Assembly (NCBI GenBank): GCA_001777915.1
Contig: MFFN01000004.1
Coordinates: 413,632-477,631, forward strand
Direction of reading: 5' to 3'
DNA from: Candidatus Edwardsbacteria bacterium RifOxyA12_full_54_48
GTDB lineage: Bacteria; Edwardsbacteria; AC1; EtOH8
Length of the DNA stretch: 64,000 bases
In this document: piece by piece, positions 27,423 through 42,519 of the stretch
Layout: every line of letters begins with the position of its first letter
How positions within the stretch are numbered: the first letter of the stretch is position 1
The notes under the pieces: model-generated
The model's database searches: none
The model's input: only the letters and a program-made list of their open reading frames with translations
What the model was told of the DNA's origin: nothing
Position numbers and translations under genes: made by a program

Positions 27423-28376
27423 TTATTTTAGGGTGAGGGTCAATACGATCGTTGACCGCTGATAGTCGCCACTATGGTCGTTTCCGGAATATTTGAAGCC
27501 CAGGCTGCGGTACAGCCGATTAGCCGAGTCCAATCTGGGATTTGTCCGGACCAGCAATATTTTTGCCTTTAGGGCCGTAGATTCTTTGATCGCGGCCAAG
27601 ACCAGTTTTTTGCCCACCATTCTTCCCCGGAATTCCGGGGCTACCGCCAATTTGGCCAGCTCGTATTTACCTTTTCCTTTATTTATAAGGGCCACGGTGC
27701 CAATTGCTTTTCCGCCAATGACGGCAAACAATATTTTTCCTCCGGGCTTGATGATATTGGCCTCTGGGTGCAACAACATCCTTTCATCAGCCGGCTCAAC
27801 GGTGAAGTATTCCTCCAACCATTGCTTGTTCAACTGGTAAAATGGTTCTTTAAATTTTTTTTTGAATTCAACGATATCGACCTCCTTATACTGGCGGCTT
27901 TTTATTTTATTCGCCACCCGTTGATACATGCTTTTATCTTCCAAGGCATCCTCTATCTGGCCGATCATTTGCAGAAAATTACAATCCAGTTCGCCCAGCA
28001 ATTCAGAGGTGCTTGTTTCAATGACCTTCCACAACGGTTTTATAGATGGCATCAGGGCCCGGCCTTTTTCGGTTAAGGATATCAGTCTTTTCCTCTTGTC
28101 CTTTGGGTCGCTTTTCGAATCAACCAGTCCCGACCCGGCCATCTCGGCCGCCAGCTGGTTTACCGCCGGATAGGTGATCCCAACCGCTTTGGCCAGTTCG
28201 GTGACCGACATGGCCTTCTGTTGCGAGAGCTGGAAGAATATCAGGAACCATTTGGGTTCGAAGTCAAACCCCTGTTCCTTATATATCCGTCCCACATCTT
28301 GCATCAGGCTTTCACTCAGCCTTTTTATTCGGCTGGCAGTCGCCAGCTCCCCCAGTTTTCTGATAAGCTCGGTCAT
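27423..28376 (-). CDS. MarR-type regulator fused to a GNAT acetyltransferase
   Basis: 317 aa from ATG 28376 (TTGAGGGG just upstream); an ATG at 28400 would add eight residues. Residues ~1-140 are a winged helix-turn-helix of MarR type (MSVTELAKAVGITYPAVNQLAAEM as recognition region, DPKDKRKRLISLTEKGR as the wing). Residues ~165-317 are a GNAT domain (AIGTVALINKG, LAKLAVAPEFRGRMVGKKLV as acetyl-CoA P-loop, ANRLYRSLGF). This fusion is known in other bacteria; it couples DNA binding to N-acetylation, with targets unknown here. An inverted repeat TGTAAG-TG-CTTACA at 28405-28418 upstream suggests autoregulation. Confidence 0.85.
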   Translation of the reverse strand: MTELIRKLGELATASRIKRLSESLMQDVGRIYKEQGFDFEPKWFLIFFQLSQQKAMSVTELAKAVGITYPAVNQLAAEMAGSGLVDSKSDPKDKRKRLISLTEKGRALMPSIKPLWKVIETSTSELLGELDCNFLQMIGQIEDALEDKSMYQRVANKIKSRQYKEVDIVEFKKKFKEPFYQLNKQWLEEYFTVEPADERMLLHPEANIIKPGGKILFAVIGGKAIGTVALINKGKGKYELAKLAVAPEFRGRMVGKKLVLAAIKESTALKAKILLVRTNPRLDSANRLYRSLGFKYSGNDHSGDYQRSTIVLTLTLK

Positions 28377-28404
28377 ATTCCCCTCAATAAAAAGTAACAT
28401 AATG

Positions 28405-40014: not shown

Positions 40015-40986
40015 TTATATCGCCAGGCTTCGTTCTCTTTCGGAACTATTTTTATTTCCCATCATTCCCTCGATGCCGTTCAATATCTGCCGGATCTCGC
40101 TCCGGGTGGGTGGATAGTAGCGGTCGGCGGAACCAAGGGTGGGGTCCCGGTATAATTTGATCAGCTTGCCGCGGCTCTCCCGGGCGATGATGGTTGACAG
40201 CTTCTCGCCCGGCATGAATTTGGCCTGATCCTGATTCCGGAAGGAGGGATTTATCATCAGCAGGGAGAGGGCCTGTTTGCGGTACAGGGAGGCCGCCCGG
40301 ATGGTCTCCCGGTAGGCCGGCTCATCGAAGATGTCGGGGCAATGGGCGGTCAGGGGCTCGGGATAGCCGTCGCTGAGCAGGATGACCAGGTTGGTGGAGC
40401 CGGGCTTGCGGAATTTCTCCAGCCGGACCATGGCCAGGGCTTTTAGCAGGCCGTCGGCCAGCGGGCTCTCCCCCTGGACCTTGAGGCCCATCAGCCCCTT
40501 GGTGATCACCCGGTAGTTGTGGGTAGGATGGTTGAGTATCTTGGCCTGCATGCCCTGCAGGGAGATCAGGCCGATGCGGTCCTGATGCAGCTTGAAGTAG
40601 CCGGTCAGGGAATCCAGTATCTCGGCGAAGATCTTGATGAAGGGGAAGGTGGATCGGCTGACGTCCACCAGCAGCACCAGGGTCATGCTCTGGCGCTCCA
40701 GCTTCTCCCAGCCCACAAAATCGCCGGGGCCGATGCTGAATTCCTTCCGGGACAGCGAATATTTGCCGCCTATCAAGGAGCCGACCACCGTCTGCAGCGG
40801 GGCCAGGGTGTTCTCGCCGGCCCGAAAGCGGACGGCCTTGATGTTGCGTCCGGACCGGTCGCTGATGACCGACCGGCGTTTCTTGCTGCCGCGGACAGTC
40901 CTGGACTTTAAGCGGCTTATTTTGTTGAGGAATTTGAAGAAGGCTTTTTTTAGCTGGCTGAAGGTGCCGGGCGGCTCCTGGAACAA
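40015..40986 (-). CDS. VWA-domain protein, ChlD/CobT-like half of a chelatase-type AAA+/VWA pair
   Basis: VWA (integrin I) domain with a complete MIDAS: LLVDVSRSTF (DxSxS), the Thr/Ser region of GESPLADGL, and LLSDGYPEP. It resembles the C-terminal domain of Mg/Co-chelatase D subunits. No ATG opens this frame; the coordinate given is a TTG with no good ribosome-binding site, and the frame stays open upstream through 41103, into the 3' end of the AAA+ gene. Basic linker KKILTFRKKKRP and a Gln/Pro stretch occupy 40987-41090. The best explanation is a -1 frameshift from the preceding gene (A9 tract at 41104-41112) yielding an AAA-linker-VWA protein of about 730 residues; independent initiation from a rare codon is the alternative. 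Confidence 0.75.
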   Translation of the reverse strand: MFQEPPGTFSQLKKAFFKFLNKISRLKSRTVRGSKKRRSVISDRSGRNIKAVRFRAGENTLAPLQTVVGSLIGGKYSLSRKEFSIGPGDFVGWEKLERQSMTLVLLVDVSRSTFPFIKIFAEILDSLTGYFKLHQDRIGLISLQGMQAKILNHPTHNYRVITKGLMGLKVQGESPLADGLLKALAMVRLEKFRKPGSTNLVILLSDGYPEPLTAHCPDIFDEPAYRETIRAASLYRKQALSLLMINPSFRNQDQAKFMPGEKLSTIIARESRGKLIKLYRDPTLGSADRYYPPTRSEIRQILNGIEGMMGNKNSSERERSLAI

Positions 40987-41090
40987 AACCGGGGCCGCCT
41001 GGTCCTGAGCCTGGGGGCGGAGAAGGATGACCGGTCTTTTCTTTTTCCTGAAAGTTAGTATCTTTTTGGAGAGATCCAGAAATTTTTCAG

Positions 41091-42212
41091 CTAGGGATTG
41101 CCGTTTTTTTTTACCCCTGGCTGGTCGGAGGGAACGGCAACCTGGATCTTCTGCTTGGCAGTTGTTTTTTGGATCGGCTCTTTGTCCCTGGGCAGATTTT
41201 TATTGAAATTATCCATTATTTCATCGGTGGTTGGCGGCTCCAGCAGTCCGCCGTCCCGGGTGCGGTGGACCAGGGTCAGCTCGGAGGCCAGAAGGATATC
41301 GCCGGAAAAAACTTCGCTGCGCCCGTTGAGGGCGGCCAGGGTCATGGCGGTCTTGATTATCACGATATCGGGCCGCTGGCCGTCCACTTTCAGGGCGGCG
41401 CAGGAGACGGCCACCGAATCTATCAGCGACGGATCGATGGTCACCCGGGGCAGCAGCTCCCGGGCGGAGAGGATCTGCTTTCCAGTCTCCGCCTCCTGTC
41501 CGGCGAACTTTTTGTGGAAGGCCTCCCGGTCATTCTCGAACAGCAGGTTGCTCTGCACCACCTGGGAGCGGATGGCGGGATCCTTGATGGTCTCGATCTT
41601 CACGCACAGCGGGAAGCGGTCCAGGATCTGGGGACGGAGATCGCCCTCTTCGGGATTCATGGTGCCCACCAGGACAAAATCGGCCGGATGGGAGACCGAG
41701 ATGCCCTCGCGCTCGATGGTGTTCCAGTGGGTGGAGGCGGCATCCAGGATGTCGTCCACCAGATGGTCCGGCAGCAGGTTGACCTCGTCCACGTAGAGGA
41801 TGTTGCCGTTGGCCTGGCCCAGGATGCCCGGCAGGATCACCTTCTGGCCGGTCTTCAAGAGCTTTTCGATGTCGATGCTTCCGATCAGCCGGTCCTCGGT
41901 GCAGCTTAGGGGAAGGTTGATTATCCTCATCTTCCGGGTGACAGCCTGATGGTCCGGCCTTTGGCGGCACAGCGAGCAGAGATCCTGGGGTTTTGCCGGA
42001 TGGCAGTTGAAAATGCAGCCGTCGACCGCCTGGCCCTCCGGCAGGATGGACTCCACCGAATGGACGATGGTGCTTTTTCCCGTGCCCTTGGGCCCGCTGA
42101 TCAGCAGCCCGCCTATCCGGGGATTGACGATGTTGGCCAGATAGGCATATTTCAGCTTATCCTGGCCCAGAATGGCGGAAAAAAGAAAACGTCTGTTTTG
42201 AGAGATATTCAT
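41091..42212 (-). CDS. ChlI/BchI-like AAA+ ATPase (Mg/Co-chelatase type)
   Basis: 373 aa from ATG 42212 (four bases after the Dabb stop; AAGG upstream). Walker A GPKGTGKST (40-48), Walker B ILYVDEVN (138-145), sensor-1 VGTMNPEEGDLRPQILDRF, all in the chelatase I-subunit style. An insert with four Cys (66, 70, 79, 82; CIFNC ... CSLC) sits after the first helix and may bind zinc or iron-sulfur. The C-terminal tail is low-complexity and ends GVKKNGNP-stop right after an A9 run containing A_AAA_AAC in register. Chelatase AAA+ rings work with a VWA D-subunit (next ORF) and a large H/N subunit, which is not in the window. Confidence 0.85.
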   Translation of the reverse strand: MNISQNRRFLFSAILGQDKLKYAYLANIVNPRIGGLLISGPKGTGKSTIVHSVESILPEGQAVDGCIFNCHPAKPQDLCSLCRQRPDHQAVTRKMRIINLPLSCTEDRLIGSIDIEKLLKTGQKVILPGILGQANGNILYVDEVNLLPDHLVDDILDAASTHWNTIEREGISVSHPADFVLVGTMNPEEGDLRPQILDRFPLCVKIETIKDPAIRSQVVQSNLLFENDREAFHKKFAGQEAETGKQILSARELLPRVTIDPSLIDSVAVSCAALKVDGQRPDIVIIKTAMTLAALNGRSEVFSGDILLASELTLVHRTRDGGLLEPPTTDEIMDNFNKNLPRDKEPIQKTTAKQKIQVAVPSDQPGVKKNGNP

Positions 42213-42216
42213 ATTT

Positions 42217-42519
42217 TCAAACCTTATAATCAACCACCACCCGCTGATGGCGGACCTTTCCCAAAAAGCCCACGGCCTTAAGGTGCTCGGGATGCTTTTG
42301 ATAGATATCCAGCCCGGCCTGGTCGTCGAATTCCGAATATAGCGCCAGGTCGTAGGCCGCTTCGGAGGGGTTGATGTTATGCCCGATCTCCAAAAAGCGC
42401 ACAGTGTCGATCTTGTCCTTGAGCCCAGCCAGCATCTGGGTGGCCAGCTTTAGATTTTCGTCCTTGCCCCGGCCGTCGGCATGATCCTTGAAGGTCCACA
42501 TTACGATATGTTTTATCAT
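42217..42519 (-). CDS. Dabb (stress-responsive A/B barrel) domain protein
   Basis: 100 aa from ATG 42519 (the 54 upstream bases of open frame start at a non-ATG and look non-coding). MIKHIVMWTFKDHADG, MLAGLKDKIDTVRFLEIGHN, YDLALYSEFDDQAGLDIYQK and HPEHLKAVGFL are the standard Dabb signature of a small dimeric ferredoxin-like alpha/beta barrel. Biochemical role unknown in most bacteria. It leads the operon with the ChlI-like and VWA genes (4-base gap). Confidence 0.88.
   Translation of the reverse strand: MIKHIVMWTFKDHADGRGKDENLKLATQMLAGLKDKIDTVRFLEIGHNINPSEAAYDLALYSEFDDQAGLDIYQKHPEHLKAVGFLGKVRHQRVVVDYKV

What the first reader, a model, noticed from the sequence alone, without database searches (positions are those of the whole stretch)
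40015..42212. Candidate programmed -1 frameshift fusing a ChlI-like AAA+ ATPase to a VWA domain
The ChlI-like ORF ends ...GTA AAA AAA AAC GGC AAT CCC TAG (minus strand, 41114-41091). The last bases contain A_AAA_AAC in the exact X_XXY_YYZ register, inside a nine-A run (41104-41112), with AGGGG a few bases upstream as a possible Shine-Dalgarno-like stimulator. A -1 shift there enters the VWA frame directly (CGG CAA TCC CTA...), giving an AAA-linker-VWA protein of about 730 residues like a chelatase D subunit. The VWA ORF has no ATG, only a TTG without a ribosome-binding site, and its frame is open back into the AAA+ gene. I recall reports of frameshifting in chlD-type genes producing both small and medium chelatase subunits; this would be such a case in a poorly studied lineage, without a large subunit gene in the window.
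Basis: partly seen in the sequence, partly recalled or inferred. Interest (0 to 1): 0.85.

Follow-up and report, generated by a model that had tools for sequence, protein, structure and literature searches.

The report
Slippery A-run joins chelatase-like proteins
One gene of an uncultured bacterium (Candidatus Edwardsbacteria) probably makes two related motor proteins by slipping on a run of nine As, a trick already known for this gene family but shown here to be kept in at least six phylum-level groups, all apparently without the enzyme's usual third subunit.

Summary
A ChlI-like AAA+ ORF (373 aa, 42212-41091, minus strand) ends just after a nine-A run. The -1 frame leads straight into a ChlD-like VWA ORF with no start codon for 117 nt past the run. 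It is neither a sequencing error nor phase variation. All eight Edwardsbacteria genomes that hold the gene (four genera), and relatives in five further phylum-level groups, keep the same -1 junction at an A-run. Of 29 junctions read, 26 have A9 or A10. The other three (one genus) have A7 with a hairpin 3-7 nt downstream and an SD-like stretch upstream. CobN/BchH is absent from the window genome, all ten Edwardsbacteria and the other gene-bearing genomes tested.

This is a new member of a published kind, the fs-chlD genes (Antonov 2013; Kuznetsov 2022), including its variant without a large subunit. Whether polymerase or ribosome slips is undecided. Run length (always 9 or more without a hairpin, in all three phases) leans towards transcriptional slippage, with a later switch to ribosomal frameshifting in one genus. 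What the complex does without a large subunit is unknown.

The parts
41091..42212 (-). 0-frame ORF: ChlI-like AAA+ ATPase, 373 aa (small product)
   Evidence: TIGR02030 337 bits (cut-off 467), TIGR02442 420 bits, PDB ChlI 6l8d E 3e-86; Walker A GPKGTGKST and Walker B ILYVDEVN read directly
41104..41112 (-). nine-A slippery run; -1 transition site
   Evidence: A9 or A10 in 26 of 29 genomes read, A7 with hairpin in 3
41103..41109 (-). A_AAA_AAC heptamer in 0-frame register (A_AAA_AAA overlaps it)
41091..41093 (-). 0-frame stop TAG that ends the small product
   Evidence: in relatives the stop lies 0-33 nt after the run
40015..41199 (-). -1 frame open region; after the run it encodes the linker and VWA domain of the long product (732 aa fused)
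   Evidence: no ATG/GTG/TTG between the run and 40986
40366..40680 (-). VWA domain (PF13519) with MIDAS-like residues DVSRS, ESPLADG and SDGYPEP
   Evidence: family profile hits PDB 2x31 (BchD) E 9e-7
41114..41118 (-).
40984..40986 (-). first possible VWA start (TTG), inside the conserved region, no clear ribosome-binding site
42217..42519 (-). upstream neighbour, Dabb (A/B barrel) gene; not seen beside the gene in other phyla

Best explanation
This is one gene with two protein products. Ordinary reading gives a 373-aa ChlI-like AAA+ ATPase. A fraction of expression events slips into the -1 frame at the nine-A run and continues through a basic linker and a VWA domain, giving a 732-aa ChlD-like protein. 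[quoted passage not shown] Shown by sequence: the junction, its conservation, the absence of a VWA start, the domain identities and the absence of the large subunit. Inferred: that both products are made, the ratio, the assembly, and the level at which slippage occurs. I lean (about 55:45) towards RNA polymerase slippage on A9, adding one A, over ribosomal -1 frameshifting. The confidence given is for the two-product reading, whichever machine slips.
For: All 29 junctions read are -1 at an A-run; none is fused by run length. The gene is in 8 of 10 Edwardsbacteria, in all four genera. Lys-Lys pairs elsewhere in these genes are AAA-AAA in 58 of 148 cases, against all junctions (Fisher p 7e-11; one per lineage p 8e-4). 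GC-rich G007 uses AAG for every other lysine counted yet keeps A9. The fused protein aligns end to end with TIGR02442 (488 bits) and TIGR02031. Where no slip site exists, relatives encode an in-frame AAA-VWA fusion or, in G033, tandem small and fused genes. In E. coli reporters with published Mg-chelatase fs-genes, A11, A9 and A7 cassettes gave 63, 40 and 10 % frameshifting (PMC3711429). Large subunit PF02514 is absent. For slippage by the polymerase: 26 of 26 junctions outside the hairpin genus have exactly 9 or 10 As whatever the codon phase, although the heptamer needs only 6-8; 9 is the known threshold (PMC1088944). The only A7 junctions carry a hairpin of 7 to 10 bp, 3-7 nt downstream.
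Against: There are no transcripts, ribosome profiles or proteomes. A longer A-run also gives ribosomes more chances to slip, so run length does not settle the level. Under-representation of long A-runs in this genome's ORFs is weak (3 seen, about 5 expected at A9 or longer). An A9 occurs inside an intact gene in the same window. In AT-rich relatives the synonymous-codon test is not significant one by one.
Confidence: 0.88

Rival explanations
1. The same two products, made by -1 ribosomal frameshifting at A_AAA_AAC or A_AAA_AAA without transcriptional slippage.
For: A heptamer is in register in every genome; in 17 of 26 A9/A10 junctions the run ends in AAC or AAG (phase 2). One genus has A7, an SD-like stretch about 10 nt upstream and a hairpin, which closely resembles E. 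coli dnaX. Published authors call fs-chlD recoding ribosomal (PMC9227772).
Against: No conserved stimulator in the window's clade: downstream z only -0.55 and AGGGG not conserved. A_AAA_AAC is a weak site in E. coli (PMC5009743). It does not explain why the run is never shorter than 9 outside the hairpin genus, in three phases.
Confidence: 0.4
2. The VWA ORF is translated separately by re-initiation or its own weak start, and the frames overlap by accident.
For: A TTG lies 117 nt after the run; L012 has an ATG at the junction.
Against: The first possible start varies from 8 to 276 nt after the run and is not conserved; sister genomes of L012 have ATA or ATT in place of its ATG. The A-run is kept instead.
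Confidence: 0.04
3. Phase variation: the A-run changes length in the DNA and switches the VWA domain on and off.
For: A9 and A10 runs are mutable in principle.
Against: All 29 genomes read are in the same -1 state; none is in the fused state through run length.
Confidence: 0.02
4. Assembly or homopolymer error in a continuous gene.
For: Homopolymers are error-prone and these are metagenome assemblies.
Against: The same off-frame state in 29 genomes from independent projects, with 0-frame stops of varied sequence 0-33 nt after the run.
Confidence: 0.01

Closest known systems
fs-chlD / magnesium chelatase fs-genes (Antonov 2013, PMC3711429; Kuznetsov 2022, PMC9227772)
   Same: ChlI-like AAA+ ORF, -1 transition at an A-rich site, ChlD VWA in the second frame; some members (Spirochaeta thermophila, Brevefilum) also lack the large subunit
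   Different: Lineages not among those named in the passages read; in the window's clade the run is 9-10 As with no detectable downstream structure; full-length scores are below the NCBIfam cut-offs
Mg-chelatase ChlI/ChlD (BchI/BchD)
   Same: Domain order and end-to-end alignment; AAA part close to ChlI structures, VWA part to BchD 2x31
   Different: One gene for both; no ChlH/BchH; scores below the equivalog cut-offs
TIGR02442 putative cobaltochelatase subunit (AAA-VWA)
   Same: Best full-length profile match, 488 bits
   Different: Cut-off 779 not reached; CobN absent; the VWA part matches weakly (66 bits)
dnaX of Thermus thermophilus (transcriptional slippage on A9) and of E. coli (SD + A_AAA_AAG + stem-loop)
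   Same: Two nested products from one gene; the two junction classes here (A9/A10 bare, A7 with hairpin) mirror the two dnaX mechanisms
   Different: Unrelated gene; here the long product, not the short one, needs the frame change

Membership tests
fs-chlD recoded genes | AAA+ ChlI-like 0-frame ORF and VWA ChlD-like second ORF | tested here: met
fs-chlD recoded genes | conserved slippery site at the -1 junction | tested here: met
fs-chlD recoded genes | downstream stimulatory RNA structure (described as usual, not as universal, so not defining) | tested here: not met
   window z -0.55; clearly met only in genus g34
fs-chlD recoded genes | both products made in cells | not testable with these tools
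   no expression data
Mg- or Co-chelatase (three-subunit enzyme) | large subunit CobN/BchH (PF02514) encoded | tested here: not met
Mg- or Co-chelatase (three-subunit enzyme) | full-length score above curated cut-off (TIGR02442, TIGR02031, TIGR02030) | tested here: not met
   488/779, 249/500, 335/467
Programmed ribosomal frameshifting | shift occurs during translation | not testable with these tools
   run-length pattern leans the other way
Programmed transcriptional slippage | A-run of 9 or more and mRNA length heterogeneity | tested here: inconclusive
   length met; heterogeneity needs RNA data

The most novel reading that the evidence does not exclude
In this deep clade of large-subunit-free ChlI/ChlD-like genes, spread over at least six phylum-level groups, the ancestral frame transition is transcriptional slippage on a strictly maintained A9/A10 run. 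One genus replaced it with a dnaX-like ribosomal frameshift signal (A7, SD-like stretch, hairpin), keeping the two-product output while changing the level of recoding.
Probability: 0.4. Interest if true: 0.6.

Novelty: new member of a known kind. Interest (0 to 1): 0.42.

Why it matters
It extends recoded chlD genes to uncultured phyla and supplies a broad natural series with the large subunit absent. Kuznetsov et al. state that the function of ChlI plus ChlD without a large subunit is unexplored; this clade, with no conserved neighbours and no CobN/BchH, suggests that the two-protein unit stands alone over long evolutionary spans. The A9/A10 versus A7-plus-hairpin split gives a direct test of whether polymerase or ribosome slips.

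Tried and rejected
AGGGG as SD-like stimulator: rejected (not conserved, too close). Downstream structure in the window's clade: none beyond chance. Conserved gene neighbours as a functional clue: none across phyla, only within Edwardsbacteria (EamA transporters). Viral relatives: none. The Antonov 2020 paper (DOI 10.1093/molbev/msaa081) is not held and is known to me only from memory and from citations. In one search the row for L012 picked an upstream A7 by mistake; its true junction is. One search read minus-strand loci in the wrong orientation and was redone. Phase variation, sequencing error and separate initiation: rejected on the conservation of the off-frame state. No structure prediction was run, because the sequence matches to ChlI and BchD structures were clear enough.

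Full report
Observation. The sequence is as described. On the minus strand the ChlI-like ORF (ATG 42212, 373 aa) ends GTA AAA AAA AAC GGC AAT CCC TAG (41114-41091), with nine As at 41112-41104. The -1 frame is open from 41199 to 40015 and has no ATG, GTG or TTG between the run and the TTG at 40986. A shift gives a 732-aa protein.

Identity. The AAA part matches ChlI (TIGR02030, 337 bits; PDB 6l8d, E 3e-86). The second part holds a VWA domain (PF13519), and a profile of its relatives matches the BchD structure 2x31 (E 9e-7). The fused protein aligns with TIGR02442 over nearly its whole length, 488 bits against a cut-off of 779, and with TIGR02031, 249 against 500. It is therefore built like ChlI/ChlD but passes no curated cut-off for a chelatase subunit.

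Origin. The window lies in a 2.74-Mb, 9-contig genome. Its relatives in the same genus and family are named Candidatus Edwardsbacteria.

Conservation. The gene is in 8 of the 10 Edwardsbacteria genomes held, in all four genera, and missing in G004 and G009. Every copy has the -1 junction at an A-run: xTA AAA AAA AAC in the window's genus; GTA AAA AAA AAC AAA TAA in g4; GTA AAA AAA AAC TGA in g2 (cut by a contig end, VWA on another contig); GAA AAA AAA AAG ACA ACA TAG in g3. A scan of the 84,980-species collection found relatives labelled WOR-3, Zixibacteria, CSSED10-310, Cloacimonadota, Oligoflexia and Latescibacterota, and searches of those groups added more. The genome tool places the WOR-3 bin1061, Cloacimonadota and Latescibacterota genomes in one phylum set, so I count six phylum-level groups. 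All 29 junctions are -1 at an A-run. Run length is 9 in 17, 10 in 9, and 7 in 3. The first possible VWA start ranges from 8 to 276 nt after the run (one ATG at the junction in L012 aside) and is not conserved.

Selection on the run. In these genes Lys-Lys pairs outside the junction are AAA-AAA in 58 of 148 cases, against all junctions (p 7e-11; one per lineage, p 8e-4). In the GC-rich G007 no other counted lysine codon is AAA, yet the A9 is kept. In AT-rich genomes the test has little power one by one. In 361 sampled ORFs of the window's genome, A6 and A7 are commoner than synonymous shuffling predicts (262 against 172, 76 against 53), A8 is not (12 against 14), and three A9 runs are seen. One of the other two lies in an intact MarR-GNAT gene at 27855-27863, so an A9 run is not proof of use by itself.

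Level of slippage. Junctions outside the hairpin genus always have 9 or 10 As, with the run ending in codon phase 2 (17), 0 (6) or 1 (3). A ribosomal heptamer would need only 6, 7 or 8 As for those phases. Nine is the length at which bacterial coding regions show selection against slippage, and A9 serves Thermus dnaX (PMC1088944; PMC5009743). The three A7 junctions belong to one genus (L012, L057, L058). They carry a stem of 7 to 10 bp starting 3-7 nt after the run (core GGTGGG...CCCACC; z -2.5, -3.7, -5.7) and an AGGAGG or GGGG-containing stretch about 10 nt upstream, much like E. coli dnaX. On the tree this genus is nested among A9/A10 lineages (100/100 for the genus), and L059 of the same family but another genus has A9; L059 has a weaker hairpin of its own (z -2.9). 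The g34 hairpin codes for a conserved peptide (VGIxKPT), so part of its conservation may come from the protein. I take this as a lean, not proof, towards transcriptional slippage in the window's clade with a later switch in one genus.

No large subunit. PF02514 is absent from the window's genome, from all ten Edwardsbacteria, and from ten genomes of other phyla with the gene, while the control genomes ring as expected. Several of these genomes are incomplete. No neighbouring gene is conserved across phyla.

Comparison. Antonov et al. 2013 described this gene type with -1 recoding and measured 63, 40 and 10 % frameshifting in E. coli for A11, A9 and A7 cassettes. Kuznetsov et al. 2022 described fs-chlD genes without a large subunit in Spirochaeta thermophila and Brevefilum fermentans and call their function unclear. 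The finding is thus a new member of a known kind. What I have not seen published, within the papers held, is the phylum spread reported here and the run-length/hairpin split.

Noticed in passing
window 27855-27863 (-): A second A9 run, in frame inside an intact MarR-GNAT fusion gene (27423-28400); possible slippage or simply tolerated.
   Followed up: partly
L012, L057, L058 just upstream of the A7 run: AGGAG-GAAGA-CTCCT in L058 could form a small upstream hairpin that competes with SD pairing.
   Followed up: no
L014/L021 (genome G033): Tandem arrangement: a ChlI-only gene followed directly by an in-frame AAA-VWA fusion gene, a duplication solution to the same two-product need.
   Followed up: partly
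L066 (genome G204): A much more divergent AAA/VWA pair also shows -1 at an A9 run, suggesting the signal is older than this VWA subfamily.
   Followed up: partly
L092:7282-8385 (+): Third A9 run in the sampled ORFs, near the ORF start (2 %); may mark a wrong start or another slippage site.
   Followed up: no
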